This document shows positions 28,707-62,903 of a DNA stretch of 64,000 nt, in pieces (the stretch's first letter is position 1; every line of letters begins with the position of its first letter). The position numbers and the translations under genes were made by a program. The notes beneath the pieces were generated by a model that worked only from the letters and a program-made list of their open reading frames with translations, did no database searches and had not been told where the DNA came from. Source of the DNA: Earliella scabrosa (Eukaryota; Basidiomycota; Agaricomycetes; Polyporales; Polyporaceae); the NCBI GenBank assembly GCA_022605405.1, contig JABYQQ010000008.1, positions 1,612,001 to 1,676,000 of the forward strand, written 5' to 3'.

Positions 28707-28743
28707 CTAGTACTAGTCGACTATTCACTCACTTTCGACTAGT
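28707..28743 (-). mobile_element. hairpin plus CTAG at island boundary, Helitron-like 3' terminus (minus orientation)
   Basis: ACTAGTCGA (28712-28720) and TCGACTAGT (28735-28743) form a perfect 9-bp stem with a 14-base loop. Read on the minus strand the hairpin is followed by one base, then CTAG (28710-28707) and a T, the order hairpin-CTRR-T of Helitron 3' ends. The spacer is shorter than the usual ~10 bases, and one short match can arise by chance. Confidence 0.3.
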
Positions 28744-29105
28744 TGTAAATAAGTTATGGCCCTCCGGGCGGTCCTGGACACGTCTAGAGGTGTGTGGTGG
28801 CTTGTAATTACGCTGACGTGCGATCACGTTTTCGATAGTGAGTCGTGAGGTGTATATTCGATACAGAAGTGCTCTTCGGACTACGTCACTAATGTAATAC
28901 CACAACGTTTCAACGGAGTAGTACAGTGTGGATGGACGGGTGAAATCGTGATGGAATGGTGTTGTGTACGTGGACTAGACGGAGAAGAGAGACGTTGGCA
29001 ATACAGCAATTGACCAGAAAGACGGTACGGGGTGCAGCTACAGATACAGCGGAGGGAGAGTATGCATGAGTTTGGATGCACGTATCGACGTCGACATCGA
29101 CGTCG

Positions 29106-30050
29106 TCACGATCGTCGGCGACCTGTGAACTATCAGCGTATGAGCTAGGCTTCAGTGGATAGAATACGTACGTTTTGAGGGTCGACGCTCGCCTGTTGAA
29201 CTGCCCCCGAGGAGATCGGTAGCGGGCGCAGGGTGTGTACGGCGAGAGCGATGGGGATCGGTCTCTTCAGGCGGGTGGAGTGGCGAGACGTGAGTGGCAG
29301 GTTCGGTGTACTCGCCGTCGTCGTAGGATGGATCTAACTCCGAGTGTATGTTGTCGTAAACCCGGACGACGGTATTCATTGCGGCGATGACGTGAACGCG
29401 CGTCCTCCAAGGCAGCCGAGTGATATCATATTGGAAGGTCGGAGAGTTGGAGATGTTTTTCCACGGGTTACGGGCGGAAGGATGGGGTTGGTTTCGTGAC
29501 GTGATGGAGGGTGCAGGAGCGATGGGTTGTGTATGAGGGAGGGGTGTGATGCTCTGAGTCGATTGGTTTCCGTGTGAATGGATCATACGGGGGAGGGTTA
29601 CAGAAGGTTGTTTCGTTCGGTCGGCCCAGATCGCACCTGCGGGTAAGGCGACCATGTCGACTTCTTTCGTCTCGTGATATGGAAAGCACTGTGGGCGGGT
29701 GTTATATCCTTTGTCGACGAGTTCTGTCACATGTTAGTCTACAGGAGACAGGAAAGGGGTGGGTCGAACTTACTAGTGAGCCACGAACATTCGTGGTTGC
29801 CGAGGAAGCAAGCGAAACATTTCCATGTACGCAGATTGGTCGCTCCGCATTGTAGGTCCCTTCGCTTACACGTTTCGCACCGGTCGTCTCGAGCGTCGAT
29901 GAGATCGTTGAATAGTTTTGCAGTAGCTAGAGCCGGTAGTAGGAGGCCAGGAAAAATGGGTACTTTCTGGCCTTGCGAACGAAGTGTTCGAACGATGCCG
30001 ATTAATCTAGGATGGAGAGAGGAGAGGGGCGCGTTGGGGACAGTGAACAT
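29106..30050 (-). CDS. Zn-cluster-like (CX2CX6C...CX2CX6C) protein, paralog of the one at 48.4-49.3 kb
   Basis: Exons 30050-29774, 29723-29172, 29122-29106; the sum is 282 codons including the stop. The N-terminal third has PLSSLHPRL, VPIFPGLLLPALATAKLF, then six Cys as CETCKRRDLQC ... WKCFACFLGNHECSWLT. The spacing C-2-C-6-C-9-C-2-C-6-C fits a Zn2Cys6-type binuclear cluster, though the basic DNA-contact residues are fewer than in Gal4-type factors. After the first intron comes KGYNTRPQCFPYHETKEV and ALPAGAIWADRT, also shared with the paralog. The remainder is Pro/Ser/His-rich. It could be a transcription factor or a host-specific zinc protein; function unknown. The intron after the cluster is at the same site in both paralogs. 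Confidence 0.7.
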
Positions 30051-30878: not shown

Positions 30879-33800
30879 TCAAGCGTCGCAACATTCGAAT
30901 GCAACGCGGCCATCGTCAGCTGCCGGTTCTAGGTCGGGCATCCCCTCGTCAGCTTCTGTATCCTCGTTCGTGTCGCCAGTGTCGCCCTGGTCTACGGTGG
31001 TAACGTTGTAGACGGAGAAGTCGGGGCGAGTTTGCGTACTGTCAACGCGTTTCGTGCTAAGGGTGGCTCCGCTATCCATCGGTGAAGAAGGCGACATCGT
31101 TCCGGCAGGAGGAACGGTACCGATGTCAAGCAGCTCCACTGCAGGAGACGACGGACGAGAATTAGTGAACGCATGGGTGCGGGAGTGTGGCTCGTCGTCG
31201 TCAGGGTCTTCGATGTCGGTAGCGTCGTCTTCACGGGGTGTGCCATCAGCATTTACACTGACTAGCGATGGAACGTCGTCTTCGTCTTCATCGCTAGAAG
31301 ACGATGCGATCGGGTCGCGGCGTACGGGTAATCCATATGGAAGAGGATAGGTGGGCGACTGTGTACGAAGATAGTAAATGCCGGTCTTTAATCCCTTCTC
31401 CCACGCACGAATGTGGAGTTTCCGCTGCGGATACGTCAGTTGGTACCAGCACGTTAAGAACTGGTTCAGACGCTCTTACCAAGAGCTGGATGTTGGGAGA
31501 CGCCACGCTGATAGACATGGATTGGGATTGATCTATATACGGGGCCCGATCTGCGGCCATATCGACGATTGAGAAGGGTTCGATCTCCCAAGCGGTGCGA
31601 TAGACTTCCTTGAGATCGTTGGGTATAGCGTCCACCTTTTGTACGGATCCTTCGGAACAAAATCAGAAGGATGCGGTCATGGAAAGATAACGTACGAACC
31701 GTGGTCTGTCAGGATCTGAAGACGAACGGCTTCGGACCACACCCCACGGGTCGTCAGATCGCGAACCAGCCAAGGGCATATCTGCGTAAAATCACCGCCG
31801 AGGAGCTGGTAGGTGACGACGTTACTGCGTTTGTAGGTATAAATGTAACGGTGAACGGACGGACTACGGTATGCAAGACGAGGCATTACCTGCTGTATGG
31901 CTCCACGCCTTCCGAATTTCCCATGACGTGAGCGGTGGATGCAGTGGGCATCTGCGCTGTGAGGAGAGAGTTTCGTAACCCGTACTTGGACACTAGAGAG
32001 CGGACGTCCGAGAAGTCGTAGTGGCATCTCAAACCGACCGACCACATGTCGAAGTATAGAATGCCTTGAGATGCGGGAGAGCCAGACCACGCCGGGTAAG
32101 GACCATGTTTCTGCGCCAGCTCGGCGCTTGCCTCCAAAGCTGCGTGGTAGATCGTCTCGAATACGCGCGCGTTGAGTTCACGGGCGGCAGGTGAGGAGTA
32201 GGGGAGGCCCATGATCATGAATACGTCGGCCAGTCCTTGGATGCCGACACCCAGCGCACGAGTCCGTTTAGCGGAGGCCGCGACCTGTCCAGTAGGATAG
32301 CGTCCTACATCAATCAGCCTATCCGTATTGCGTACGACCACTTTTGCAACGGCGTGAAGGGTGTCGAAATCGAATGTCCGGTCTCGCCGAACGAAACGAG
32401 GTAGGCCGATGGAAGATAGTGTGCATACCGCGGGGTCGGAGGATGATGCGTACTGTACGATTTCTGTGCAAAGGTTGGACGTCTCTATAACCCCCAAATG
32501 GCGCTGCCCGTTTCGACCTGAAAAGAAGGCCGAAGTGAGCGTGGGTCGTGTAAGAGAATATTGGCGGATCACCGACGGTTGATATTGTCTTGGTACATGC
32601 AGAATGGGGCTCCGCATTCCGTCTGTGCCCTACAAACTGACGCCCACAGGTTGCTTGCAGAGACGCGAGCGAGCGGTTTTACAGACGCGATGCAACGCTG
32701 ATATTCGGCGGTGAACTCGGCGTCGTAGAGCTTGCACAGGTTCGGCGCGTCGACGGGGTCGAACAAGCACCACTCGCCGTCCTCGTTCAGTCGTTGCATG
32801 CTGACAGCGGTTAGTACAACATCCCAATCGACGTCCGCCGCAAGGACACTTTCAGACAGCAGACTGAATTGGAAATCGACGCACAATATATCCGGTATCC
32901 ACAAGCCGGGATAAAGGTGTCGAACTCGCAGGTATTCGGGTGCGCGAGCAGTCCGACATTCGATGAACGACCGAACGTCGCCGTGCCAAATCGGTAAGTA
33001 GACGGTGGCGGCGGACGGCCTGCGTCGCCGGCTGCCGATGCAGTAGCTAGCGTGGGCGTCGTACACACGCATCAACGCCATAACGCCGGGCTGCTGAGCG
33101 ACACCCGCCCTGAACGAGGTCAGTTAGCGTATCGAGGTGTCCAGACGTACGAAAACGCGCACCTCCGACAGGGTACCTGTGCCAACGACATCCCTACGCC
33201 TCCATCAGCCATCCAGAAGTTGTCGACCTCCGCGGTATGTCGAAGTAAAGCGCGAGGTGTACGCGCGTCCGGCACAGTTAGGAAGCACGACGCGTAGAAG
33301 GGCGTTTGCGTTCCTGCGTTAAAAAGGACTGGAGATGCGTGAGTATACAGCTGCCTAGACAATGCGTCGTAGGTTTCCAAAACGCGGGACACGTCTGCAC
33401 CGTGGATGGCGAGAGCAGTTCGCATGTACATGTATTGCGGCCGCTCGAGGCGGTCGTCATTCGAACGAATGAGATAAGAACGAGACATGGTTTGAACAGC
33501 AGGACTAAAGGCGTTTTGTTAGCTTAAGTGGGAGCATCGCACTAACGTCGTACGTACTAAGCCAGGTTGAAGTCGCGCGCATGTACTACGGCTCCGTCCA
33601 GGAGATGCGAGTAGTTCTTGACGGTAGAAACCAGTTGGGTGTCCCACCGACCAGCGTTATCTACCGGACACGGGTCAACACGGTCAGCAGGCATAGAGTG
33701 CAATAGGCAGATACGGGTTTACGAACGGTTATCGAGAATCCATTCGCTGAACGAAGGTCCAACACTCTTATGGATATCGGCAATCATCAGACGCCCCGCG

Positions 33801-34357
33801 AGTAACGTGTACGCTGGGTGTCTCGCGCTGTAGCTGGCTACCGTAGAGGCAGTGTGTTTCTACGAACGGATTATCACTATCACGTGAGCCACCAAAGCTC
33901 GAAGTGCGCACTAGGAGTTCCGCGGATGTAATTTGAATCGGTAAGCTGGTCCGCACATCTTTGACAATCCTGTTTCATAGGTTGGTTGGATGTCCAGGAC
34001 GATATAGGATGGGGAAACGTACTCGTCGAAAGCGAGGTTGACCTGTTTGACATCCCAGCAGAACTGACTTCAGGTTACTAATGTTACACTTCATCGCTGT
34101 TTGGTGACGCCCGATTCGTAAGCAGTTTTTGAGCTATAAGCTGTGGGTTAACGATCGCCGGTAATCAATGGCTGTATTGTTACCTTCGTAGGGTCGAATG
34201 GTTGTAGTGAACTATAGGTTGGTGTTGAGTAGAAAAGATTGCGATGTTGGTGTGAAACGTACCGGCCTGATGGAGTAAGTCAGAATGCAAAGAGAGACGT
34301 GTGTCGAAACTTACCGCGTTTGAGAACAGTGGCGAATTCAGCAGGGGTAGTATCCAT
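30879..34357 (-). CDS. RNR1: ribonucleoside-diphosphate reductase large subunit (class Ia, R1), divergent, intron-rich
   Basis: Reduces ribonucleoside diphosphates to deoxy forms together with the small subunit (a gene for it lies at 54.9-56.1 kb). About 14 introns; the frames join to a full R1. N-terminal ATP cone: VLKRGRSLQPFDPTK, ITSAELL, ARHPAYTLLAGRLMIADIH. Catalytic domain: RPQYMYMRTALAIHG, THASPVLFNAGT, ASCFL (redox Cys), GGVGMSL, VMALMRVYDA, LWIPDIF, CGAPFCMYQD, SNLCTEI (catalytic N, C, E), AVCTLSSIGL (second redox Cys), KHGPYPAWSGSPASQGI, PTASTAH, DQSQSMSISVASP and LKTGIYYLRT (the Tyr pair). All catalytic residues are present. A ~150-residue acidic, Ser/Thr-rich C-terminal extension ends AFECCDA instead of a CX2C pair. 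Sequence is visibly more divergent than housekeeping fungal R1. Intronic stops make it look broken in raw frames, but every join found keeps phase. Confidence 0.93.
34315..34357 (-). other. RNR large subunit first exon followed by a 4-nt microexon (34264-34267)
   Basis: Exon 1 (34357-34315) ends in phase 1. The next exon must supply 4 bases, GCCG, bounded by CAG before and GTACGT after; flanking introns are ~48 and ~51 nt. Exon 3 then begins with T and codes SLQPFDPTK. Only this reading gives the R1 ATP-cone motif VLKRGRSLQPFDPTK in one frame. Confidence 0.65.
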
Positions 34358-35028: not shown

Positions 35029-36715
35029 ATGTCGTCCAGTCTTAAAGAAGCTATTCTCAAGTGGAAATTGCAGTCTTTCCGATCCAGCGATCTGGCATAT
35101 GGTGTTGCTGTGTCTTCGTTGCGTCGTGGACAGCGGTTGATCGATGCAAAGAGGACGGGTCCGAGGGAGTGGACGGTATGTGACGTGTGTTCGAGATGAT
35201 CGATTTGCATAGGTTAACCCGTACCAGTTTTGTCGTGCAGGCACCGACGAAGTGGCAGTGTTCAGTCATGCCGCGATTTTTCACGACGCGGACGACTATT
35301 ATACTGGAAATCTTGTGTTTGGAGACAATGAAGCACCCGATACTGTAGCAGAGGGAAAAATGTAAGGTCGAGTCTACTATTTGAACTTGTTAACGAACGT
35401 CATACGTTAGCGAACGAACAGCTGGTTACAAATGTAACTATACTTACGCGTTCAACACCGTGAACGACGGCGATTTTTATCACTATCAGATGGTGAGTTC
35501 CAATTAGATGGCGTCTATAACCATTCGGACACTGTAACTAAAGTGTTGTTCAGGATTTGGAGGAGTATATCAAGACTTTACCCGGTTTCAATCCCGGCGA
35601 GGTCCCTCGAAAGACTTGGCAGTCGGGGTCGCACGAATACAGCAATAGCCTATTCTGGGTTAGTGTCCCGATGTTTATTCGGACTAAACCTGGAGACAAG
35701 AAGCCTCCGCCTGCGACTCACCTGCATCCGTGGGTGGTAGAAGCTGCGAAGAGCAGTCGACAGTATGTTCCGAATCCTGCGCGACCGAATGTTCGAGGAG
35801 TGGAGAAGGGTCGGTTAGAGGACATCCGAGCGTGTCGTCCTCCCGTTCTGCGACGTGGCGATGCGGTGGCCTTGCGGTTTAGCGTCACCTACATCGAAGG
35901 AGACAAAGACTACTATCCTCAGTATTTGTTGACGGACATCATTCGCGTGCATCTTGGACCGGAGGCGGCAAACGAGTTGGAGAATACGTTCGTGAAGCCG
36001 GTCACTGTTGCGGAGGCTTTACAAGACGGCGAGATTGTAGATGGTAAGTGGCTCGCGTGGTGACCGTACTTATTGCACGCTGATACAGGGCGAAGTAGAA
36101 GACGAGATTATATCCGAAGTACATCGGAATGCGTCTGGCAAGCGTGACGACGATGAGACGCAGATAACACGGGAGTTGGACAGCAGCGGAACATCAGCTC
36201 ACCGGAATCGCGCTGATCGCCGTGTGGAAGATATAGAGGAGGACGCAATGGATCCCCGCGCGGACGTGGAAGATAACGTGTCGGTCGGCTCTAGACGTGA
36301 TATGGAGATCGATGCGGTGGATGGATCTGCGGTCGATGCGGGTAATGAAGAGTTCGTTGTCGTTGGCAACCAACTCGATGACGAGGTACAGGCGGGCAGC
36401 CCCACGGGATCGACGGTTTCTTCGGTGACTTCGATGTCGAGTAGTGGGTTTGGGGATGGTGACAATGGCGACGACATGTACGAGGATGCTGGGTATGGCG
36501 GAAAGGGGAAGGGAAAGGGGAAGGTGAGAGAGCGGGAGAGTTACATAGATGGTGAAGCTGAAGAAGAAGCTCCGAAGCGGAGGAAAAGCGAGAGGCATCG
36601 GGCCAGGGACTGTAAGTTGATCGATTATTGTCGGCTTCGAGCGTTGTCTGACCATATTCGTTCATTTGCAATGTGCGATCAGAGCGGAGGTAGACGAAGA
36701 GCGGTTACAATATGA
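35029..36715 (+). CDS. hypothetical protein with RGD(A/I)V...YPQYLLTDIIRV core and acidic/basic nuclear-type tail
   Basis: Exons 35029-35175, 35213-35361, 35411-35492, 35554-36036 and 36089 to about 36660 or 36715, phases consistent. N-terminal part MSSSLKEAILKWKLQSFRS, then NPYQFCRAGTDEVAVFSHAA. Exon 4 encodes the most ordered part: GFNPGEVPRKTWQSGSHEYS, VSVPMFIRTK, PPVLRRGDAVALRFSVTYIE and YYPQYLLTDIIRVHLG. I know similar PPVFRxGDIVE...RV arrangements only as uncharacterised agaricomycete proteins often found near transposons. The last exon is acidic, Gly/Lys-rich (GGKGKGKGKVRERES) and has a likely nuclear signal (PKRRKSERHR). No function is assigned. The first intron is short (37 nt) and the last exon end is uncertain. 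Confidence 0.6.
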
Positions 36716-40438: not shown

Positions 40439-41549
40439 TCAACCGACGACGTTCTCCGCCTCATCAACACCCGTCACGTTGGATGGGAGAGATTGATTCA
40501 ACGAGTTACGAAGTGCACGCCAGGCCGCCTACAATGTGTTGAGTGCCTCTCGAGAATTCAACTATCAGCATATGCAGACACTCACGGTGATACGAGGATA
40601 GGGTGTGACGACATGCCACCCTCGCCTGAACCGGACGAGTGGAAAAGGTGGAATTGGCTGGCCAACAGTGGTGCGGAAAGGAAGGACGATTGCATCCACA
40701 TCACCGAAATATCTTTCGTCCCACGCGGAAGGATCAACACCAGCGTTAGAGGACGGACGTTCGAGAAAATGAAATCCTCGAAGTTTGTATTTCGATACGG
40801 CGGCCTGGTCCCTCTCTTTAGTGAGGTTGACCTTCAGCGCACCTGTCCGTACGAAAGTTGGGGAAGGAAATCCGCAGACGCAGCCGTCAGGTGTGAGGAA
40901 ATTGATCAACAGAGTCGACCAAAAGGATGTGAGGGGTAGGCACGGGTTGTTTGCGGCACTGCGGATCACGTCTACTTCACGCCGATCCTTCGTTTGAAAG
41001 CGGACAACGTCTTTGATACCATTGACACCGCGTTCAGAGGAGCGTTTACGAGGGGGGAGAGAGTTGGGAATAGGAACGAACTGGATTCGTGGGTCGCGAA
41101 CGATGACAGATAGAAAAGTGTCGAACATGCGGTCAGGAAGGTAAACGTCCATATCGCCTGGGATCCATTGTTCATCGGGGAGAAAGTATTGAAGGGCAAC
41201 AGAACCCGATATAACGCCGCCGCAGGCGCGGAGAATTGTATTGAAATAGTCGATATCGATGACGAAGGGGTCGATGGCTTGGTTGTAGCGAAGACGTAAT
41301 GTTGTGGCGACGACGGTGTAGAAGGTGCGACAGGTTTTCCGCCAATTCACGAGTGTTTTGATATCGGATGCTTGTATCACGGAAATCATGACGTCATGGT
41401 GTAAACTGACATGTTAGGTTAGCTGGTATAAACGTGTCTTCAATCTGTGCATACTCGATAGGTCCCGTCAACGAGTTGAGGGATGAGGAAGTGGCTTGAT
41501 AATTCGAGGGATGCGCGGGAGACGACGCTGCCGGAGTGGCGAGGTCCAT
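40439..41549 (-). CDS. F-box-like / nucleotidyltransferase-fold protein, family member 1
   Basis: Exons 41549-41455, 41405-40586, 40528-40439 (335 codons with stop). After a Ser/Ala/Thr-rich start, exon 2 opens with LHHDVMISVIQASDIKTLVN and WRKTCRTFY, an F-box-like helix pair. Then comes a core with GGVISGSVALQYFLPDEQW and GDMDVYLPDRMFDTFL; GS...DxD is the signature of the nucleotidyltransferase (MNT/polB) fold. Later: WSTLLINFLTPDGCVCGFP, KLRGFHFLERP and DERYFGDVDAIVLPF. The third exon codes AAWRALRNSLNQSLP. Related to genes at 42.1 and 63.1 kb, with the first intron at the same place and phase. Possibly a substrate adaptor or antitoxin-like nucleotidyltransferase; function inferred from fold only. 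Confidence 0.7.
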
Positions 41550-42138: not shown

Positions 42139-43339
42139 TCATACAGTATACGCTCGATTCCTGCGGGAGACAGTTGTACCAGTGAAGGACGACGAAGAAG
42201 GAAGAGTTTCAGTAGCTGATAGAGATAGTCGCGAAAATATAGGGTCGGCTACAAGGAACAGAGGCATAGATATGACACCTCCTGGTAGAATCCCGTCGGT
42301 ATAAGCACATCCGTTATCGCACGATGCCATCGTCCATAAACGCCAAACCGTCATGTATCCGTATGGTGGCCGTGAAGTTGCGTATGCAAGGGTATGGTTG
42401 TGCGTGAGTGGGCAGATAAATGCAAATAACGAACCTGGGTCTCCGAAATAGCGGCCTTGATCTGGACACAGATACAAATGACGCATACAAGGTACAGTAT
42501 GGGGATTTTGACGGGTCCCGATATCGACACGATATTCCGGCCAGTGTGAGGAATGAAGAGCGAATAGAAATCCGTGAGACAGGAGTAGTTGTACGTTCTC
42601 GTAATCGTCGTCGGTCAACGACTCTAATGTAAGTTCCGAGAACAGTGCTCGTCGAGACAGAGTGAGTCGAGGATAGGCGCAACTGAAGGAATCTTCGGTG
42701 ACGAAGTTCATTAGAGCTGTAGTCCAAGAGCGACCAATGGGCGAATAGCAGCTGACGGTGCGAGATTCGTGTATGTGAATTTTACGACCCGTTGCGGTGA
42801 TGAAACGGGCGCAACGACGAATGTCGCGCTGATGTCTGAAGGATGGAGTGGGTGCCGTTATGCGGTCGAATACCACGTGCGGGGATACGAATGGTGAATA
42901 GGTGAGGTATTCCAGTAGGATGGGGAAGCAGTTTTCGTCGATGAAAACGTCAAGTGCGGCGGATATGATGCTGTCGTCGCGCAACATAAACGCGAGTGCA
43001 AAGATGCCTCCAAGGACGGCCCGGCAATCCCTGAGAATTCGGAGGAAGTCGCGAGGACATGGAAGATAGCGTCGGACCATGTGGTGCATCGTGGATTGCA
43101 AGACGCGCGTTACACGGCCGCAAGAGGCTCGGCATACGGCTCTCCACAAAAGCAGAGACGGCATATCCATACGATCGAGGACGAGAGTGCCGAGCTGCAC
43201 GTCGTATCTGTAACATTTGGTATAATGTCAGATTTAGTTAAAGCTCGAAGACTGCGAGACATATTTACAGAAGACGGTGAAACGGCGTGGACTGGTTAAG
43301 ACTGGACGGACGTGAGGTTTGCAGAGAAACGGTAGCCAT
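42139..43339 (-). CDS. F-box-like / degenerate nucleotidyltransferase-fold protein, family member 2
   Basis: Exons 43339-43269 and 43207-42139 (380 codons with stop). N-terminus MATVSLQTSRPSSL...FHRLL; exon 2 begins YDVQLGTLVLDRMDMPSLLL and WRAVCRASC (F-box-like). The core reads CRAVLGGIFALAFMLRDDS then LDVFIDENCFPILLEYL: the GS and first Asp of member 1 are changed, so nucleotidyl transfer is unlikely. It shares ALMNFVTEDSFSCAYPRLTL, LLSHGFLFALHSSHWPEY and CPDQGRYFGDPGSLFAF with member 3 at 63.1 kb. The tail is Ser/Thr-rich. Confidence 0.65.
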
Positions 43340-43757: not shown

Positions 43758-45111
43758 ATGAAAGTGGAGATGGACATCGATATGCATTTATCTGTACGGC
43801 AGGTTGGACATTGTAGGTCTCGGAATTGTGCCTGTGGTGTGTTCACTAATGGGATGTAGTTGTCATTAAGGAGTATATAGACCATGGACGAACTGGTGTG
43901 GTGTTTCGAGGGGAAGACCAGCGTACAGGAGGTGTGGTGGCCGTCAAGCTTTCACGTCAAGAAGATGAATACAGAGAATCAATACGGAATGAAATCAGAT
44001 GTTATACGCGAACGAATGGCGTTAATGAAAACGGCGATAAGTTAGTAACCACTATAGTGTGTATATTGCGTGAACGACTCATGTCTGTGGTAGATCAATT
44101 CATTTGTGCACGATGTTGTCGCACGGGATCTGTGTAGATGGGGACTATATCGTCCTTCCCATGTTGGGGTCGACGGTACGAAAGATGTTGACACAATTCG
44201 GCGTCGAGATGTTCGACGAAGAAGATGCGTGTAGCGTCAGTAAACAAGTGGCGGAAGGTTTATCTTGTAAGTATAAACAAGTCGAGCCGTCTTGAACATA
44301 GGTGTTGACGGGGTACAGATCTTCACCACATGGGAATCACGCATACCGATATTACGTCGGAAAATGTCTTGTTGTCGGTGGATAGCGTGGGGAAATTGAG
44401 GGATGTACGTCGGCGGTCGTCAGGAAAGAAGGATGTAAGTTGACGAGGCTGAAAAGGCATAACGTACCGAGAGCGGTTGATAATTTGACGTACAGGCCGG
44501 CGATGTGTTAGTTTACATCGTTGATATGAGCGATGCCCGTATAGGCATCAGCGGACAGAGCGGTATGATCGGAAGTAATCAATACAGAGCTCCTGAAGTA
44601 ACATTGGGTCAGTGCAATAGGAGCGTTTATTGTCTGCTAGCACAGCGCTGATGTATTTATTCAGGGCTCCCTTGGAACAACCACGTGGATTCTTTTGCGT
44701 TAGGATGCCTCATGTACGAAATTCGAACAGGAGGGATGTTATTTCCCTGGACGACTTCTTCAGCAGAACGACTATTTGCGGTATTCAAGAGAATTGGGCC
44801 ATTCCCAAGTGATTTAGTGCGGAACGCTGGACCTGCTTTCGAAAAATATTTTCGCGACATTGGAGGTGTATTTGAAGTACTGTTGTCTAGAACATCCGTC
44901 AGCGACATACAAGGTCAGCGACATGTACGCGCGTTACAATCTATTCAAGTAAGTGTAAGATGAAATGGAACAAGTGTTTCGTATTGATAGATGTATACAG
45001 ACTGATGGAGATGACGGAATGTATGCGAAGTGGTGTCGGTCATTTCTCGTTATCGCACCTGATAAACGAGGAAGATTGGAGGAGTTCTTGATGGTCATGA
45101 AGGATGTTTGA
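43758..45111 (+). CDS. SRPK-like protein kinase with HTD catalytic loop
   Basis: Exon joins found: 43812|43860, ~44041|44093, ~44271|44324, ~44437|44497, ~44608|44667 and ~44949|45001, all phase-consistent, giving ~340 residues. N-lobe: FVIKEYIDHGRTGVVFRG (Gly loop) and VVAVKLSRQ (Lys), then the Glu in NEIRCY. Catalytic loop GITHTDITSENVLL: HTD replaces HRD, as in SR-protein kinases. The DFG position reads VDMSDARIG. Activation segment ends SNQYRAPEVTLG, followed by VDSFALGCLMYEIRTG, LFPWTTSS and a short C-lobe (FLVIAPDKRGRLEEFLMV). Both Lys and catalytic Asp are present, so activity is possible; the Phe/Gly of DFG are not. Kinases of this branch phosphorylate splicing or cell-cycle proteins, but the substrate here is unknown. 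Start at 43758 is the first ATG that fits; an earlier exon is possible. Confidence 0.8.
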
Positions 45112-46479: not shown

Positions 46480-46592
46480 GTTTGCTCGATCATGTACAGG
46501 TGAAATCGACTTGTAAGAGAACACGATGTCAAGAGACAAGAGGGCGAGAATGGCAAAAGTCGTATAACCACATGGTAAAGTCCTAGAGCGAA

Positions 46593-47445
46593 TCATCTGT
46601 ACCATACGAAATACTCTCGAACATCATCGACATCCGAGTCTTCGAAGTTAACATAGTCGGGGACGCCAGCACATGCGAGTTTCATGATCAGAACTGTGCC
46701 AGGCCACGGTCGAGGAGGGGGGATTACTCCTTTCGTGAGAGATGCGATGGCGTTGTTAGGAAAAACGTCGTGTGCATACGACTCCAAGCAGAAGAATATG
46801 ATAAACGGAGACAAGAGGAACGATAGGTTTCGTCCGAACTGAAGTAGGAACGAACCGTACGGCTGAATGAAGAACTCCGATAAGACAGGGATGGGAAATG
46901 GGGAGACTGGATTCGTGGTGTTGCGTAACAGACGAACTTGCACGAATTGAGGTGAATCTACGGTTGAAACGGTCAGTGTTTGGGATTAGGATTGTTTTCA
47001 GTGCGCACCTTGTAGGGGATGTGCAAGCATTGCAACAACGGTTGCCACATGCTCTTCAGGGATCGAAGTCGGCAGACTAGGTTTTCCAACCTCGCAGGGA
47101 GAGTTGTTATCTCCCTTATGTGTCGACGAGGCGTCTTGTGCGGAACGCAGCGACTCAAGAACAGCATCTGAGCTCTGCAACGCGGCACCATCGCATGTGT
47201 TACGATGGTTCGGCCAGTCCTGATGTAGAAGTATGAATCATCCGAATGTGAAGATCGAGGAGTTAACGCACCGCGAGGAAATCTTGAGGGGAGCAGTATG
47301 GCGGTCCGTTGATACATCGAGCGCAGTGAAACAATGAAGCAGTACCGCAGACAGTACAAGGAGGTAGTTCAGTCATCCGCAACGCGGTGAGCGGGTGGGG
47401 AGTGTCGTGCATGGAAGCAGAGGAATCAGATATCAGAGACGACAT
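46593..47445 (-). CDS. MYND zinc-finger protein
   Basis: Exons 47445-47272, 47219-47009, 46957-46593 join in phase to 249 residues. The MYND ligands are spread over the first intron: PPCTVCGTASLFHCARCING, PYCSPQD, then DWPNHRNTCDGA. The C-terminal part has FFIQPYGSFLLQFGRN, FPNNAIASLTKG, PPPRPWPGTVLIMKLA and DYVNFEDSDVDDVREYF, a region seen after MYND in other agaricomycete proteins but of unknown function. A different subfamily from the MYND gene at 14.2 kb. The start could also be at 47514 or at MTELPPC. Confidence 0.75.
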
Positions 47446-54932: not shown

Positions 54933-56095
54933 CTAGGTTTCCACAAGTACATCAGAAGCAGCGAAACCGTATCGATAGTCACCGACAGGTCGCTCGAAAA
55001 AGTTAGCCTTCACTCCGACGCCGATAGCCTCCATGAATGCAAACTGGAGAACGGGTAGATTTCAGCAACGAGTCATCCCCAATCAGAAGCTGACACCTAC
55101 GGGATTCTTCTTGTTGTAGAACGTGGGACAGCCGAACCTGTCGAGGAGCACGTCCGCGATGTGTTCAATATAGTCACCCATAAGGGCAGAGTTCATCCCC
55201 GTCAGTGGACCGGGGAGCGCGGCTGAAGACAGTCAGCAGGTAACGTCGCGTACGCATTGGAAGCCTACCGGTGAAGAAGGTCTTCTCGATCTTGACAGCG
55301 TCTTGAACCATGTTCGAAATCATCCACGAAGAGACCCCTCCTCCGAGTTCATGGTACATCAGACATGCAAACGAAACGTGCGAGCCTTCGTCTCGAGCTA
55401 TCATGACGTTGGTCTGAACGAGACCAGGCATGAGACCCCTGCTCTTCAACCAATATATTGCCGCAAAGGAGGATGAGAAGAAAATTCCCTCAATGATGGC
55501 GAAAGCGACGAGGCGGGTGGTGAGAGACGCGGTCTTGTCTTCGATCCACTTCCGGCTCCACTCCGCCTTGGACAAAATGGCCGGGTTCTTCTCTACCGAA
55601 CTGAAGATAGCTTCTTGTTCCTGTGAATCCGGAAGAAGTTCCATCACGATTCGACTATAAACTTCGCTGTGGACGTTCTCCCTGAAACGTATGTCAGTTC
55701 TGTAACTGCCGTCAAATGGACTAACCCACATCATGAGTTGTACGCCGTAGAAACAGCGAGCTTCAGGCAACGTAACCTCCGAACAGAAGCGTTGGGCAAG
55801 GTTTTCGACGATTATCCCGTCAGCTGCCGTAAAATACGCCAGGATAGTCGATATAAAGCTGCGCTCATCCTCCAGTAGCTTGCTCGACCACTGGTCACGA
55901 TCGACCGTGAGGTCGATGTCTGATGCCGTCCAGATAGACGATTGCGCCGCCTCATACGCAGCCCACAACTGCAAGCAGATCAGTCCGACAAGTTCATCGA
56001 GAGATGTATACAAACGACAGCACCTTAGGACGTCTAATAGGAAGAAGAACGTAACGCGAGCGATAGTCGATGACGTCGGGAGACGGAGAAGACAT
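54933..56095 (-). CDS. RNR2: ribonucleoside-diphosphate reductase small subunit (class Ia, R2)
   Basis: Carries the di-iron/tyrosyl radical that starts catalysis in the large subunit (gene at 30.9-34.4 kb). Exons 56095-56024, 55968-55730, 55681-55269, 55222-55101, 55043-54933 sum to 319 codons, all in phase. Start MSSPSPDVIDYRSRYVLLPI, then AYEAAQSSIWTASDIDL, FTAADGIIVENLAQRF (Asp and Glu ligands), LPEARCFYG (Glu ligand and radical Tyr), ENVHSEVYS (His), VAFAIIEGIFFSSSF (Glu), IARDEGSHVSFAC (Glu, His), then ALPGPLTGMNSALMGDYIEH, YNKKNPFAFMEAIGVGV and ANFFERPVGDY. All iron ligands and the radical Tyr are present. The C-terminal end is VLVET rather than the usual terminal Phe used to dock on R1; an extra exon may have been missed. 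Shorter than typical R2 (~400) by its N-terminal extension. Confidence 0.93.
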
Positions 56096-56504
56096 TGTGG
56101 AAAGATTCGGTTGAGGTTCATGAGACAGACGTAGTGGACGAAAGAGGTATTTGTAGGGAAGCAGTATAAGGTTTGAATACGGCTGATTTAATCACGCGTG
56201 GTGGAAATGAAAGAGCATTACGCGGCAACCTATCAGGACGGTACTGGACCATGGATGGAACGACTACTATGGATGACAACAGATGGACGAGGTGGGAGGT
56301 TGTCGTAGAACATCATCACGACTTACTCGTTGTGTTGATATACACCGCACACGCTCATAGTGATGGTATGTTGCATTGTTTAGACGCGGAAAAACGACTA
56401 TATAAACATTATCCAACCGTACGCGTGCGATGTTGCAGTCGAATCAATGTCGTCCGTACACGCGTTAGACACATTTGCTTCGGATATCGAAGCTGTGATA
56501 GATC
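56096..56504. promoter_or_regulatory. divergent intergenic region between RNR small subunit and Helitron transposase
   Basis: About 400 bases between divergently transcribed genes. The 111-codon plus-strand frame here lacks features. No Helitron 5' TC end could be fixed. Confidence 0.35.
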
Positions 56505-56757
56505 ATGAGCGAATCGTTCTATCACAATGTAAGAGCAGTAGTTGCTGTTTGGGCTCGGTTGTTGAATCTAATTGTATTTTTGATAGGTGAGACAGGACCC
56601 ATTGCAGGGCCGTCACATAATACTTTCGAGCAGTCTAACGATGTAGAAAGTAAGGTTTCGCTCGACGTACGTACAATCGACGATGTTGACCATGACACAG
56701 TTGTTCATATCGCGTTGAGCAATAAACTGATTGCGACGGACGACATCATCGTCGGTG
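56505..56757 (+). CDS. possible 5' exons of the Helitron transposase gene
   Basis: MSESFYHN is followed by a GTAAGA donor (56529) and a TTTTTGATAG acceptor (~56586), then an acidic exon (GETGPIAGPSHNTFEQSNDV ... DDVDHDTVVHIALSNKLIAT) ending near a GTGCGT donor at ~56756. This fits a spliced leader exon pair in front of the main transposase frame, but the join was not resolved. Confidence 0.35.
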
Positions 56758-56765
56758 CGTGATGA

Positions 56766-59700
56766 TTGATGAATCATATTGTGCCCCCCTCTCACGTTCA
56801 TCGTATGATAGCTTGCGCTCGGACGCAGTTGAATGGACAAGTCACTCTGCAATGGTCCAGCGCGGCTCAACTTTCTCTCGACTATACTCATTCTATCAAG
56901 TGTATTTTCAGCGTATGGAACGATGCTGATTTATCGAAGCTGTCTTTGCGCGACAATGATGTCGTCGTGAATGCACATGCTACAGAACTTTTTAGCGTTT
57001 ACAGGATGTGGCAGTCAGGGGATCTGCGAGAACTCGCGCACGCTCACGAGATTCCTCTACTTGTCAAAGACAACAGGACCACTTTGCGAGCTAAAATTCT
57101 TCAGCATATATGCAACGAACATTGTCCGGTGGTATTGACGGTATTCACAACTTTAGGACAAGTTCGTTCGGATGCTCGAGTGCAGCAAAATATAGATGCA
57201 TTCGAACGTGCGGCGGTACCGGCTACAAGAGATGCATTCTTCATGGAATGTATTGACAGTACCACGCGCCAGTCGTTCATTCGAGAATGGCAGGACAAAT
57301 TTGCGACAGACAGATTTCGTCAATTGGTATGTGCATCATGTGCCCGCGGTGTGACGACTGCGGATGCGAAGACGGTCGATCCACGGGAGTTGGATCTAAC
57401 CCTCCTTAGAAATGATGCACTACCGTTGAAGGTGCGTCCGACTACATATGACTTTGAACTGTACGACCGAGCCATCTTATGTCCGTATGGTTTGACCGAT
57501 CGGTGGATGTTAGCACCTATGACGCTATGTCCAACTTGCTGTCGTGAGTTGGTAGGTAAGACGCGCATGCCAAAACTTTGCTTAGCAAACTGGCTTTACT
57601 ATGGTACAGACGAGTTGCCGTCTGCAGTGAAATCCGCACTGGCAAAGAGCTCGCAATTCGACCGGCTCCTTGTTGCACGAGCTCGAGCCAGTAAAATCTC
57701 GTATAGGTTTACCGAACTCAGGAAGGACAAACCGTATCATCCTGAACCTGGCCATTTCGTGGACCCTACAACAGCACAACGTTTTGTGAAGGGTAATGTG
57801 TTAGTTATGCCTCAGAACTCGACGATGCTAAACCGCGTTCTCCCTCCTTCACCGACCGTGATACGAGACACCGTCTGTGCAATATTCGTGGGTAGAATGA
57901 AACCTACAAAGCAAACTATAGGTAAAATTAGTCCGATACTAGCGCGGAAAAGCACGATACGAACCATCATTGAATTTCTAATCGCGGAGAACGACCATTA
58001 CAGCTGCGATACGACGTTTCATGGTTTTAGCGAAGACAATTTAAATCGTCTATTCGACGAGGATGACAGTACCGATGCGGGCGTCCCGTGCGCTATGGAG
58101 ATTGGTTTCCTTGAAGACACCGAAGCTAATCGCAGTGTAAACTCAGACTATACTACAAGGAATGAAGAAGTCGAGACTCCTGCAGACGGTGAGGACATAC
58201 TGATGGAAAACGTTGGGTATACGTCTGGTGACGACTCGCCGGTATCATATCGAGATATGAAGATGAAAGCTCTAATGCATTGTTTGACCGGAGGAAGGTT
58301 TGTGAGGTCGCAAGCTGGAGATCGTTTTATCCCTGACTTTGAGAACCCCAGTTTACTGACATGGATGTTCCCTCATTTAGATCCATGGGGTATTGGTGGA
58401 TTCCATCACCCCCATCGGAGAATAACCATCACACTTGAAGATCAGTTACGGTACTTATTGCAGATTCACGACAGTCCATTTACCAAGGACGCCGACTTTG
58501 CATTTGTGTATTACAATATTCTTCAGAAGAAAGCAGTATGCGATTCAGTTCATTTTAGAGTCAAAGCATCTCAACAGCGGGAAATCGTAACGCAACTGTT
58601 GAACGTAGACAGATCGATGTTAGGAACACTGATCGAGAAGTTCAAAAGGGATCCAAAATACGATAGTAACGTGAGAGAGGAGATACAACTGCTATCACTA
58701 GTGAATAAAGTTGGAGGCGTCTTACACGACTTGCCTGGAACATCTGGATATAAGATACGTATGCGTAATGAGATCCGCGCACTGGTGAACCACAAAGGTA
58801 CACCGGCTTTCTTTGTCACACTCAACCCTTCAGATGTACAAAACCCGTTAGTTCGTTTGTTTGCGGAACATGATATTTCGTTGGAAAGTATCGAGAGAGG
58901 ACAAGAACTATCCGAGTGGGGTCGGAAATTGCTCGTGGCGCGAAATCCGGCAGCTTGCGCTAGATTCTTTCATACGATGATAACAGGATTCATCGAGATT
59001 ATTTTGAGATATGGACGTGAAGAATCTGGATTATTCGGACGATGCTCAGCATATTACGGTACAGTTGAAGCTCAAGCCCGAGGAACTCTTCATTGTCATA
59101 TGTTGATATGGATTGATAATCATCCTTCGCCGCAACAGTTGCGTGATTTGATGTCTGAAAACGCCGACTATCAACAGAAAATGTTCAGGTGGTTAGAGAG
59201 TCTGATAAAGTGCGAACTACTGGGGTCTGTGACGGAAGTGTTAGAAGAAGGGGGGACACCGTTATTACGTCCTCGAATTCCGGAAACAGACGGATATATT
59301 CATCCAGGATGTCGGCCTGCTCCATCAGTATCGGATATGCCTGCCGAACAGTTTGGTATAATGTATGAATCATTCGTGAATGAGCTAGTGACGCAGTATA
59401 ATTGGCACGAACATACGGAAACGTGTTGGAAATATCTTAAGAAATCAGAATCTAAAACAGACGAGAATTGTCGAATGCGTATGGATGGGAAGACGAGGTC
59501 GCACAGTATGATAGATGAAGAGACTGGATCCATATTGTTGAGAAGACTGCATCCTAGGATAGCAAATTACAACGATTTGGTAATGTTCCTGATGAAAGCG
59601 AATATGGACATAAAACATATTGGTTCTGGGGAGGGCGCAAAGGCGCTGATATATTACGTTACAGACTACATTACAAAGTCATCTTTACCGGCACATCTCG

Positions 59701-62660
59701 GTTTAACTGCATTGATGTACGCCATTCAACGAGCAGACGACAAATATAAAGACGTACAGGAGTGGGGACCAAAACAACACGCGGGAGCGCTGACTATTGC
59801 AATGAATAGCATTATGTGTAAACAAGAATTCTCACAGCAGCAGATAATGAGCTATATCATAGGAGGGGGAGATCACTACGCTAGCCACAGATTCCGGTTA
59901 ATTCACTACGGTGCGTTTGAACGCAGGATCGATGCGTACTGGCATTCTCGGGAACGACGTGAACACGATTCTAGCGCTAGCGTCGATAGTCTACATCCAG
60001 CACCCGTGATGAATGAATCACGAGCTGCAAATATACACAGTACTACAAACACTGTTAGTAGCGTCGACCCGGTCAGTAGAGAAGAGGAGGTAGCTTTATT
60101 ATCAGGAGATGGATCTATATCTGCTTCAAACCAACAACAAGATTATATGTACAGACCTTTAGAAGCACCGTTCGCGAATATGTGTCTATACGAATACGTC
60201 GGAATGACAGAGAAGATTACCGTGCAAGCAGAAACGACTCGTTCAGAACGGCGTCAAAATGTCGATTCTCAATCTAGAAGGAGGGGGAGAAGAGAGGAAG
60301 CACGAGGGATGTTTACTGATATGCATCCGCAAAGAGACACTCACCTCGTACGTCAACGAGTGATATGGGTTGTTCCGGTAATTTTGGGTGACCGCATACC
60401 CAGAAACGATAGATCTGTAAAGGAAAAAGAGGAATGGGCTCGCGCTATGTTAATATTGTTCGTTCCATGGAGAGACGCTCTAGAGTTGAAAGATGACGAT
60501 GAGAGTTGGCTCGATGCGTTTGACCGGCGGTCAGCAGGAATGTCACAGGCACACTTGAACATTATCAATAATATGAACGTCCTTTGCGAGTGTAGAGATG
60601 CTCGAGATAACCACCGTCGGATTAATAGGCATGCGACAGATGATCACGATGTTACGACAACCAACGAGAGAGAGCGAGAGACATACATTGATCCCGAAGA
60701 GCAACCGCATAGTGTTCAACATGCGCATCTGGACGGAGATATGCAGGCAGACGAAATCAAAGATCTGCTGGCACTTCTAGACAGTGAAATCCAACTACCT
60801 GCCAGAGCTGCAATGGACTGGTGTTTCTCCCGTCAACCAGAAATGACAGTGGAGCAAGATGACTCGGATCGTGTCAAACAATTGACCGTACAAGAAAGAC
60901 GAGAGTTGGCTGCAGAGTTAGCCACAATGCGACAGTTGAAACGGAAAAGGAGACCGGACCTTACAACGGAGCAACGCGACGAACGGCGCAACGTTAGAGC
61001 GAGAACGGGAACTTATCCATCAGTGGATATATCTACCGTAGAGAATACGTCTACGTCAAATGCACAAACTACATCCACGGATGGCGATCGTACCGCTGAT
61101 ATTGAGGGGGTAATACTACAAGTTGTCATCGAGTTCGGATTAGATCGAAACGAAGAGCAGAGACGCGCATTCGAAATTGTGGCCAGGCATCTTGGTGATG
61201 AAATAGACGAACAGCTGTTGATGTACATAGGAGGTGTCGGCGGAACGGGGAAATCGCACGTTGTGAATGCAATCCTGAGGATGTTCGAACTATTGGGGAG
61301 AAGAAATGAAATTCAAATCAGTGCGCCGACCGGAGCGGCCGCAATTTTGATTGGAGGGTTTACGATCCATTCCCTACTACTTCTCCCGGAGAGATCAGGG
61401 ACAAATCTCGAAGAGCTGGAGAAGGCATGGGCAAACGTACGATATCTGATAATAGACGAAGTTTCGATGATAGGAGCAAGATTGATGAGTCAAATATCTG
61501 CAAGGCTGCAACAAGCGAAAAGCACGTATGGACATGCAGAAGATCGTCCTTTCGGTGGGGTACATGTAATATTTACCGGCGATTTCGGTCAACTGCGCCC
61601 AGTTCGGGATGGTTCTTTGTTTAAAAGTGAACTCGTCTCACATCCAGGACTAAGAACCGTCAATCGAACTGAAGGGATTTCTCAACTGAAGGGGGTATAC
61701 CTTTGGCGTCTCGTTCGTACGGTGGTGATTCTGAGAAAGAATCAACGCCAACGCGACGATAAGCACTACGCAGAGCTAATTATGCGCATACGACAAGGTA
61801 CGGAAGGAAATCGTCGAGATGTAGTCATCTCATCGGACTTTGCTGCACTGCAGGGTCGGATATTGCAAACGTTAAGACGTAGTGCGAATGTCACCGATAT
61901 GCGAGCCTTTGAAGATGCTCCGGTTATCGTGGGTACCAAATATCTGCGAGATTTGGTTAACTGCAGACTATTGAATCATCACGCACGCAGATTGGGTGTT
62001 CATATCCATAAGTACTATAGTCGTGATACGATATTAGGTGAGACTCCGACCATCACCGAGCAGAAACGTCTTCATCAATTGCGTAACGAAGACACAGACG
62101 ATTGTCCGTCCGTGATGGAACTTTTCATAGGTATGAGAGTAATGATACAAGAAAATCTCGCCTTCATGAACAACGTTGTTAACGGTGCGGTAGGAACCAT
62201 CGAAGGTATACGGTACGAAGAAGAGGGCAACAAAAGATACGCAATAGTTTTGTATGTAAAGATACCAGGATCCGGACGCGTATGTCAGAACACGGAGGAT
62301 GACGTGATTCCTCTTTTTCCCGAGAAATATTCGTTTCAATGGGCCAGGACAGAGGACGATGTAGTTAGAGTGAACAGAATCCAGTTTCCAATCTTACCAG
62401 CTTATTGTTATACAGATTACAAAGCACAGGGGAGATCACTAGATACGGCAATCGTAGATTTAACGAGTGCAAGATCATTACAGGGTGCATATGTTATGCT
62501 ATCCAGAGTACGGAACATCAAAGGACTCGGAATTTTACGACCGTTCTTACAAAGCAAAGTGCATCAGAGACTTCCTCAAGAGATGCGGTCAGAATTCGCA
62601 CGACTAGAAATGTTGGACGAGATGACAAAACAAACACATATGAACAGAGAGCGGTTGTAA
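56766..62660 (+). CDS. Helitron Rep/PIF1-helicase transposase
   Basis: 1,964-residue uninterrupted frame. N-terminal SAP-like segment (LRELAHAHEIPLLVKDNRTT ... ILQHICNEHC), then a DUF6570-type zinc-rich region (CASCARGV; LCPTCCRELV; PKLCLANWLYYG). The Helitron-like N domain includes the HUH relaxase motif GTLHCHMLIWI (His at ~776 and 778) and catalytic tyrosines in YYVTDYITKSS (~963-968). After an acidic/basic linker comes a PIF1/RecD helicase: GGVGGTGKSHV (Walker A, ~1489), LIIDEVSMIG (Walker B, ~1561), FTGDFGQLRPV and YCYTDYKAQGRSLDTAIVDL (~1880). It nicks and transfers a DNA strand for rolling-circle transposition and unwinds it. No internal stop or intron, so this copy looks able to function. 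Confidence 0.95.
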   Translation: MMNHIVPPSHVHRMIACARTQLNGQVTLQWSSAAQLSLDYTHSIKCIFSVWNDADLSKLSLRDNDVVVNAHATELFSVYRMWQSGDLRELAHAHEIPLLVKDNRTTLRAKILQHICNEHCPVVLTVFTTLGQVRSDARVQQNIDAFERAAVPATRDAFFMECIDSTTRQSFIREWQDKFATDRFRQLVCASCARGVTTADAKTVDPRELDLTLLRNDALPLKVRPTTYDFELYDRAILCPYGLTDRWMLAPMTLCPTCCRELVGKTRMPKLCLANWLYYGTDELPSAVKSALAKSSQFDRLLVARARASKISYRFTELRKDKPYHPEPGHFVDPTTAQRFVKGNVLVMPQNSTMLNRVLPPSPTVIRDTVCAIFVGRMKPTKQTIGKISPILARKSTIRTIIEFLIAENDHYSCDTTFHGFSEDNLNRLFDEDDSTDAGVPCAMEIGFLEDTEANRSVNSDYTTRNEEVETPADGEDILMENVGYTSGDDSPVSYRDMKMKALMHCLTGGRFVRSQAGDRFIPDFENPSLLTWMFPHLDPWGIGGFHHPHRRITITLEDQLRYLLQIHDSPFTKDADFAFVYYNILQKKAVCDSVHFRVKASQQREIVTQLLNVDRSMLGTLIEKFKRDPKYDSNVREEIQLLSLVNKVGGVLHDLPGTSGYKIRMRNEIRALVNHKGTPAFFVTLNPSDVQNPLVRLFAEHDISLESIERGQELSEWGRKLLVARNPAACARFFHTMITGFIEIILRYGREESGLFGRCSAYYGTVEAQARGTLHCHMLIWIDNHPSPQQLRDLMSENADYQQKMFRWLESLIKCELLGSVTEVLEEGGTPLLRPRIPETDGYIHPGCRPAPSVSDMPAEQFGIMYESFVNELVTQYNWHEHTETCWKYLKKSESKTDENCRMRMDGKTRSHSMIDEETGSILLRRLHPRIANYNDLVMFLMKANMDIKHIGSGEGAKALIYYVTDYITKSSLPAHLGLTALMYAIQRADDKYKDVQEWGPKQHAGALTIAMNSIMCKQEFSQQQIMSYIIGGGDHYASHRFRLIHYGAFERRIDAYWHSRERREHDSSASVDSLHPAPVMNESRAANIHSTTNTVSSVDPVSREEEVALLSGDGSISASNQQQDYMYRPLEAPFANMCLYEYVGMTEKITVQAETTRSERRQNVDSQSRRRGRREEARGMFTDMHPQRDTHLVRQRVIWVVPVILGDRIPRNDRSVKEKEEWARAMLILFVPWRDALELKDDDESWLDAFDRRSAGMSQAHLNIINNMNVLCECRDARDNHRRINRHATDDHDVTTTNERERETYIDPEEQPHSVQHAHLDGDMQADEIKDLLALLDSEIQLPARAAMDWCFSRQPEMTVEQDDSDRVKQLTVQERRELAAELATMRQLKRKRRPDLTTEQRDERRNVRARTGTYPSVDISTVENTSTSNAQTTSTDGDRTADIEGVILQVVIEFGLDRNEEQRRAFEIVARHLGDEIDEQLLMYIGGVGGTGKSHVVNAILRMFELLGRRNEIQISAPTGAAAILIGGFTIHSLLLLPERSGTNLEELEKAWANVRYLIIDEVSMIGARLMSQISARLQQAKSTYGHAEDRPFGGVHVIFTGDFGQLRPVRDGSLFKSELVSHPGLRTVNRTEGISQLKGVYLWRLVRTVVILRKNQRQRDDKHYAELIMRIRQGTEGNRRDVVISSDFAALQGRILQTLRRSANVTDMRAFEDAPVIVGTKYLRDLVNCRLLNHHARRLGVHIHKYYSRDTILGETPTITEQKRLHQLRNEDTDDCPSVMELFIGMRVMIQENLAFMNNVVNGAVGTIEGIRYEEEGNKRYAIVLYVKIPGSGRVCQNTEDDVIPLFPEKYSFQWARTEDDVVRVNRIQFPILPAYCYTDYKAQGRSLDTAIVDLTSARSLQGAYVMLSRVRNIKGLGILRPFLQSKVHQRLPQEMRSEFARLEMLDEMTKQTHMNRERL

Positions 62661-62854
62661 GTGAGACACAGTAGTTGATAACAAAGGGACCGATTAGATC
62701 AAAACAAGGAAAGGTGCATGATGATGCAAACCCCACATGGATGCCGTCAACTCGTATTCGATGGTCGATAAATCATATTATATCTTGTGGTTTGTTGTGA
62801 TCGCAGTTACGGCGAGTCGATGACAACTGTTGGATCACAGTCTCGGTCATTAAT
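62661..62854. other. 3' flank of the transposase gene
   Basis: No gene; A+T-rich stretch between the transposase stop and the hairpin. Confidence 0.4.
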
Positions 62855-62903
62855 CACTCGCTGCAGGGTAGCGAGTGGCGCGTATTAATATCGGTTGTGC
62901 TAG
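62855..62903 (+). mobile_element. candidate Helitron 3' terminus: hairpin then CTAG
   Basis: CACTCGCT (62855-62862) and AGCGAGTG (62870-62877) form a perfect 8-bp stem with a 7-base loop, about 200 bases after the transposase stop and in the same orientation. CTAG follows at 62900-62903, next to a T, as expected for the hairpin-CTRR|T end. The 22-base spacer is longer than the usual ~10-12, so the exact end is uncertain. Confidence 0.45.

What the first reader, a model, noticed from the sequence alone, without database searches (positions are those of the whole stretch)
28707..62903. Both subunits of a class Ia ribonucleotide reductase next to an intact Helitron transposase in an accessory-looking island
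The large (30.9-34.4 kb) and small (54.9-56.1 kb) subunit genes are intact, intron-rich and visibly divergent from housekeeping fungal RNR, yet keep every catalytic residue I could check. The small subunit is divergently arranged ~400 bases from a full Rep/PIF1 transposase. Fungi normally have RNR genes scattered among conserved neighbours; I know of no Helitron that carries RNR. A dNTP-supply module linked to a rolling-circle element would make biological sense, but the link is inference from position.
Basis: partly seen in the sequence, partly recalled or inferred. Interest (0 to 1): 0.88.

Follow-up and report, generated by a model that had tools for sequence, protein, structure and literature searches.

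The report
Giant jumping element carrying ribonucleotide reductase
In a wood-rotting fungus, a large family of Helitron-like jumping DNA elements carries its own complete ribonucleotide reductase, the enzyme that makes DNA building blocks, plus a conserved but catalytically dead copy of one subunit, which suggests that a transposon can bring its own supply of building blocks.

Summary
The window (Earliella scabrosa, contig C8) holds one copy of a multicopy element. Genome-wide, 24 of 28 non-housekeeping R2 genes sit 3.2-3.6 kb from, and divergent to, a Helitron Rep/PIF1 gene; housekeeping R1 and R2 lie elsewhere. Active R1 lies just inside a repeated terminus (hairpin, then (C/T)TA|T; window 28750), found in 9 of 10 R1 loci read. 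Its core motif has 119 genome-wide matches against 5 for a reversed control, and independent alignments stop at it.

R1, R2 and transposase keep their catalytic motifs; copies differ at mostly saturated dS with low dN. Element R2s form one clade (100/99) across Polyporales, and the Earliella copies lack the FTxDEDF tail by which R2 docks on R1.

New here: three elements read in full also carry a second R1 that is catalytically dead. Nine of nine such copies read lack NLCxE, VCxLAS and PTAST, form one clade, and the closest pair shows dN/dS 0.08.

Best reading: a giant Helitron-like element with its own RNR and a pseudo-R1. The dNTP-supply role is inferred. The 5' end, expression, and linkage in other species were not established.

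The parts
28750..28781 (-). R1-side element terminus: GTGTCCAGGACCGCCCGGAGGGC, 9 nt, then TTA|T; hairpin GCCC-GGA-GGGC. Last element base 28750
   Evidence: (36.8 bits); same motif in 9 of 10 R1 loci read; junctions (other copies)
30879..33856 (-). Catalytic R1 (large subunit), intron-bearing; SCFL, NLCTE, AVCTLSS, PTAST, YYLR present; C-terminal vicinal Cys-Cys (ECCDA). 5' limit not fixed
35029..36051 (+). Gene B, unknown, conserved in C9 and C10 copies
   Evidence: no Pfam match
40565..41389 (-). Gene C, unknown, resembles gene D by eye
42139..43200 (-). Gene D: F-box-like start plus nucleotidyltransferase-like fold (weak structural matches only)
44146..44957 (+). Gene E: protein-kinase-like fragment (Pfam 30.5 bits, below the 31.7 cut-off); DNA hits in C10 only
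46599..47400 (-). Gene F: unknown, Cys-rich MYND-like start (by eye)
54933..56121 (-). R2 (small subunit), ligands and tyrosine present; stop 13 codons after GDY by direct reading, without FTxDEDF (the NCBI model P0001 splices to another tail, also without it)
56766..62660 (+). Helitron-like transposase: Helitron_like_N (Rep), DUF6570, PIF1 helicase; HCH, YYVTDYITK and GVGGTGKS motifs in the ORF
   Evidence: 431 relatives; dN/dS
63150..64000 (+). Gene H, similar to D; continues past the window to about 64181

Best explanation
The segment is one copy of an old, recently mobile family of very large Helitron-like rolling-circle elements (conserved core about 37 kb in C9; full length not fixed). 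Shown: each of about 25 copies couples a RepHel transposase to R2 of a class Ia RNR, arranged divergently, and the active R1 is the outermost gene beside the hairpin end; the three elements read in full also carry a catalytically dead R1 paralogue (R1'). R1, R2, RepHel and R1' are kept by purifying selection. Inferred: the short divergent region co-expresses R2 and transposase, so that dNTPs rise when the element synthesises tens of kb of new DNA; the lost R2 docking tail means that the element enzyme pairs within itself and not with host subunits; R1' acts as a non-catalytic alpha subunit that modulates element or host RNR, or binds another host factor, as inactive herpesvirus R1 homologues do.
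For: Divergent R2-RepHel pair at 3.2-3.6 kb in 24 of 28 non-housekeeping R2 places, 26 of 28 within 24 kb. Shared core gene order at protein level in C8, C9, C10. Terminus: 99% pair (C34/C8) and 76% relative (C12) stop at one base; motif in 9 of 10 R1 loci read; 119 matches vs 5 reversed; within 6 kb outward of 15 of 22 NLC+ R1 places, chance 0.7% each; in C9 eight copies of another repeat start exactly at the junction. R1 motifs intact. R1' dead in 9 of 9 read, monophyletic 99/97, dS 0.64 dN 0.05 in the closest pair. R1/R2/RepHel dN low at saturated dS. Element R2 clade 100/99. R2 tail lost in 8 of 8.
Against: The other (5') end was not found, so a single element spanning all genes is inferred from synteny; in C9 another repeat abuts the left arm. 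The end is (C/T)TA, not CTRR, and RepHel points away from the hairpin end. Of 100 listed end motifs 76 are not assigned to an R1, and 7 of 22 NLC+ R1 places (one of them housekeeping) lack a listed end within 6 kb. No expression or enzyme data. Some near-identical copies at contig ends may be assembly duplicates.
Confidence: 0.78

Rival explanations
1. An endogenised relative of a large DNA virus, or a virus-derived replicon, that uses a Helitron-like RepHel; RNR and F-box/NTase genes are common in such viruses.
For: RNR and F-box proteins occur in giant viruses; gene D's best fold matches in the viral library are giant-virus proteins, some named F-box (E 3.4e-8, TM 0.41). About 25 strongly diverged copies in one genome.
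Against: No capsid hit with PF04451 (but its control was silent, so weak). RepHel found no relative in IMG/VR. Element R2 is apart from 21 IMG/VR R2 (98/91). Repeated hairpin terminus and genes with introns.
Confidence: 0.1
2. A passive gene-capturing Helitron: the RNR genes once were host genes, now serve the host (dose or stress role) and only hitch-hike.
For: Helitrons capture genes; selection keeps R1 and R2; many listed ends are not next to an R1.
Against: Two subunits, a dead R1 and RepHel are kept together in diverged copies; R2 docking tail lost, which argues against pairing with host R1; housekeeping RNR present.
Confidence: 0.1
3. Ordinary host RNR genes, amplified by segmental duplication, with a Helitron next to them by chance.
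For: A few near-identical places at contig ends (C3/C7; C1/C10/C22) look like duplicated or doubly assembled ends.
Against: Separate housekeeping genes; fixed spacing and orientation in 24 of 28; repeated terminus and exact junctions.
Confidence: 0.02

Closest known systems
Fungal Helitrons HELPO1/HELPO2 of Pleurotus ostreatus (PMC4289320; passages)
   Same: RepHel transposase, subterminal hairpin, extra genes carried; a 3' end deviating from CTRR (CTTG in HELPO2)
   Different: 1.5-13.7 kb there; 'ribonucleo' does not occur in that paper's main text. Here the core is about 37 kb with two RNR subunits and a dead R1
Helitron2 / FoHeli elements of Fusarium (PMC5148889; passages)
   Same: RepHel; in some, transposase orientation inverted relative to the ends
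   Different: About 5-11 kb with asymmetric terminal inverted repeats; no such inverted repeat was found here in the regions scanned
Giant eukaryotic transposons: Teratorn (PMC10175614; start of abstract) and Starships (PMC12134995; start of abstract)
   Same: Large size, many genes
   Different: Other transposition enzymes: piggyBac fusion with other sequences; tyrosine recombinase
Inactive herpesvirus R1 homologues such as HCMV UL45 (PMC5469499; start of abstract)
   Same: Non-catalytic R1-like protein encoded by a selfish element
   Different: Here fungal and transposon-borne, alongside an active R1 and R2; no function known
Yeast RNR1 and RNR2 (1zyz, 1smq)
   Same: Class Ia R1 and R2 with conserved catalytic motifs
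   Different: Element R2 lacks the FTxDEDF tail in Earliella; half of eight readable element R1 tails end in Cys-Cys instead of CxxC

Membership tests
Helitron superfamily | RepHel protein: HUH Rep domain plus PIF1-type helicase in one ORF | tested here: met
   PF14214 E 2.4e-34, PF05970 E 3e-22; HCH and YYVTDYITK in the ORF (motif roles recalled)
Helitron superfamily | Hairpin about 10-12 nt from the 3' end (Helitron1 definition in PMC5148889) | tested here: met
   GCCC-GGA-GGGC with 7-10 nt to the end in 8 of 9 termini (L003: 4 nt by the script's rule, 10 by another reading); predicted hairpin in 8 of 9 folds
Canonical Helitron1 | 3'-CTRR end | tested here: not met
   (C/T)TA in 9 of 9; so filed as Helitron-like, not as canonical Helitron1
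Canonical Helitron1 | 5'-TC end and insertion between A and T | tested here: inconclusive
   T follows the end in 9 of 9 (the rule itself required TAT); 5' end not located
Helitron2/Helentron | Asymmetric terminal inverted repeats | tested here: inconclusive
   No second copy of the motif in the C8, C9, C10 regions scanned, but the opposite end is unknown
Class Ia RNR large subunit | Active-site cysteines, NLCxE, PTAST, YY pair | tested here: met
   window R1 against yeast RNR1 and reading
Class Ia RNR small subunit | Six metal ligands and radical tyrosine | tested here: met
   columns invariant in 10 of 10; roles recalled; enzyme activity not tested
Inactive R1 homologue (UL45-like in function) | R1 fold kept, catalytic residues lost, gene conserved | tested here: met
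   9 of 9 read copies, one clade, dN/dS 0.08 in one pair; the barrel exon only; function not tested
Endogenous nucleocytovirus | Major capsid protein | tested here: inconclusive
   PF04451: 0 matches, but no control genome rang

The most novel reading that the evidence does not exclude
A eukaryotic rolling-circle transposon that is self-sufficient in nucleotides: it encodes an RNR holoenzyme uncoupled from host subunits by loss of the docking tail, plus a dedicated pseudo-R1 that relieves feedback inhibition of the element enzyme, disables host RNR, or neutralises a host defence, so that dNTP supply is part of the transposition machinery.
Probability: 0.4. Interest if true: 0.93.

Novelty: new variant of a known kind. 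Interest (0 to 1): 0.87.

Why it matters
If true, dNTP supply is a limit that transposons can evolve around, as large DNA viruses do. [quoted passage not shown] The conserved dead R1 raises a directly testable question: what does a pseudo-RNR do for a transposon? Searches of the held open-access library listed no title or abstract start that describes RNR in a Helitron; the papers were not opened, several listings were capped, and subscription papers and preprints are not held.

Tried and rejected
Low GC as a sign of foreign DNA: rejected, the C9 copy has host-like GC. Nucleotide alignment of window and C8 flank with C9 and C10 to find ends: only nine pieces of 150 bp or more at 70-77%; replaced by protein synteny and by the near-identical C34/C8 pair. 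Subtelomeric location: no telomere repeat at 7 contig ends examined, 140 bases each. A second copy of the hairpin end at the left arms: not found. Left end by shared 13-mers: nothing. Left end in C9 by repeat junction: ambiguous, because another repeat ends there. RepHel relatives in IMG/VR: none. Linking R2 and RepHel in other species by shared contig lengths: none seen by eye between the listed rows. NCBIfam and Pfam on remaining ORFs: nothing useful. The first R2 tree held one mis-framed row (L010); it was mended, and there I also moved the Panus row P0049 into the element group because the first tree had put it near that group. Before merging R2 matches, I left out the 22 weakest rows of 80 (C-terminal exons beside listed places). 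One search stopped with a script error before all pairs were printed; RepHel pairs were redone.

Full report
OBSERVATION. The window is G000:C8:1612001-1676000 of a 51.7-Mb assembly. The best match to its R2 is annotated Earliella scabrosa on a contig of 2240451 bases, the length of C8. R1 aligns along yeast RNR1, with the SCFL, NLCxE, VCxL, PTAST and YYLR motifs (residue roles recalled). R2 columns for metal ligands and tyrosine are invariant in 10 of 10 element R2 proteins aligned.

COPY NUMBER. HMM searches for R1, R2 and Helitron_N gave 99, 80 and 68 matches, merged to 45, 30 and 66 places (for R2, 58 of 80 rows were merged, the rest being C-terminal exons beside them). Housekeeping genes are separate: R1 at C9:79196-80790 and two R2 at C5:1027425-1030462; these R2 fall among basidiomycete R2. 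Of the other 28 R2 places, 24 have the Helitron_N domain 3.2-3.6 kb away in divergent orientation, and 26 have it within 24 kb. The two without are C10:1774, at a contig start, and C44:20974. Near-identical places at contig ends (C3/C7; C1/C10/C22) may be assembly duplicates, so 'about 25 copies' is an estimate.

ANATOMY. The C8, C9 and C10 elements share a core order at protein level, although DNA aligns in only nine pieces of 150 bp or more at 70-77%. On one side of RepHel: R2, F, D, C, B, R1. On the other side in C9: H, F, D, C, another gene, R1', an H-like gene; the arms are a partial mirror image. In C8 the second block is inverted and lies outside the window (about 76.5-86.9 kb in window coordinates). 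Gene D has an F-box-like start and a nucleotidyltransferase-like fold, with weak matches only: best PDB E 0.005 at TM 0.22; best viral E 3.4e-8 at TM 0.41.

TERMINUS. A 99% identical pair (C34 and C8:1977k) and a 76% relative (C12) stop at one point about 1.3 kb past the last R1 HMM match in C34. The motif there, GTG(T/G)CCAGG-NN-(C/T)GCCCGGAGGGC, then mostly 7-10 nt and (C/T)TA|T, is in 9 of 10 R1 loci read; L004 has none in the letters held. It scored 33-39 bits in three regions, against at most 13.9 elsewhere in the regions scanned. With up to 3 mismatches the core has 119 matches genome-wide, against 5 for the reversed control (100 of 119 listed). Among those 100, one lies within 6 kb outward, in the right orientation, of 15 of 22 R1 places with an intact NLCxE pattern (the housekeeping gene, without one, included) and of 7 of 23 other places; chance is 0.7% per place. 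None of the 9 proven-dead R1' has one. 76 of the 100 were not assigned to any R1, so most listed ends belong to something without R1 next to the end. In C9 eight copies of an unrelated repeat start exactly at the junction and six other sites match only the element end. In the window the last element base is 28750. The opposite end was not found: in C9 another repeat ends at 1732958 and homology to the C1:5.02-Mb element starts at 1732959, which may be the end or a nested insertion.

THE DEAD R1. Where active R1 reads SSNLCTEI, R1' reads ASNESASL (C10), CLDASATC (C9) and ASGKVLDL (C8). All 9 R1' copies read lack NLCxE, the VCxLAS cysteine and the PTAST loop, while the rest of the barrel exon aligns throughout. 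In C8 and C9 the YYLR pair is also gone, and in C8, C9 and C10 no SCFL is seen (by eye). R1' forms one clade (99/97), so it arose once; in the two element pairs that can be matched (C10 with C1:4.46-4.51 Mb; C9 with C5:258-291 kb) R1 and R1' group alike. Between C9 and C1:5027k, over 189 codons, dS is 0.64 and dN 0.05. None of the 45 rows for this exon has an internal stop. Of these 45 rows, 22 match the NLCxE pattern, one more (L007) is active on reading, 9 are dead and 13 were not read.

SELECTION AND AGE. dS is mostly saturated; dN is 0.18-0.41 for R1, 0.16-0.46 for the R2 pairs printed, 0.16-0.40 for RepHel. Thirty-six R2 (Earliella, Cubamyces, Polyporus, Lentinus, Trametes, Cerioporus, Sparassis, Panus) form one clade, 100/99, with a Trametes R2 of normal tail as sister (97/87). 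This group lies beside, not inside, the sampled fungal-animal group, and apart from 21 IMG/VR R2 (98/91), so a host-fungal origin is likely but not resolved. Polyporus and Lentinus copies fall in several subclades, so the R2 family predates those genera. Whether these R2 lie in the same kind of element in other species was not seen.

TAILS. In 8 of 8 Earliella element copies read, a stop comes 10-16 codons after the FFER...DY motif, without FTxDEDF; both housekeeping R2 have a GTGAGT donor before their stop, presumably leading to a tail exon that I did not read. The NCBI model of the window R2 splices to another tail, also without FTxDEDF. Several relatives end in FSTxxxF. R1 tails end in CxxC in four element copies, in Cys-Cys in four including the window, and L002 shows neither.

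MECHANISM. Shown: linkage, one end, conservation and a conserved dead paralogue. Inferred: dNTP supply for rolling-circle synthesis, co-expression from the region between R2 and RepHel, self-pairing, and the role of R1'. In print, fungal Helitrons reach 14 kb, maize ones 39 kb, and full-length gene capture is called exceptionally rare (PMC6431247, passages); HELPO elements measure 1.5-13.7 kb (PMC4289320, passages); some Helitron2 elements carry RepHel inverted relative to their ends (PMC5148889, passages). Inactive R1 homologues are known from herpesviruses (PMC5469499, start of abstract).

Noticed in passing
window 9657-10277(+), 17994-18896(+), 24291-25451(-), 27152-27901(-): Several ORFs share a GDLD...(V)(Y/W)G(S/T)W motif followed by Ser/Thr-rich and transmembrane-like stretches; they look like a local family of fungal surface proteins next to the element (by eye).
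   Followed up: no
window 3375-5954(-) and 1294-2664(-): Retrotransposon-like ORFs: a Ty1/copia-like gag-integrase reading and a CCHC zinc-knuckle gag-like reading (by eye).
   Followed up: no
G000:C25:313461 and 328661; G000:C1:2419015, 2434203, 2449393: R1 copies repeated at regular steps of about 15.2 kb, as in tandem arrays; possible products of rolling-circle read-through.
   Followed up: no
L138:1-317 (C34:297200-297516): A short repeat of about 317 bp with a dozen further copies in the genome sits between R1 and the element end; probably a nested insertion.
   Followed up: no
window 47.5-54.9 kb: About 7 kb between gene F and R2, against about 1 kb in C9 and C10: probably an insertion; ORFs there have no useful Pfam match.
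   Followed up: partly
G000, 76 of 100 listed end motifs: Most listed hairpin ends are not assigned to an R1; they may mark smaller non-autonomous or other-cargo members of the family.
   Followed up: partly
window R1 tail 30879-31400; L003, L005, L007: The C-terminal redox motif is a vicinal Cys-Cys instead of CxxC in four of nine element R1 tails read.
   Followed up: partly
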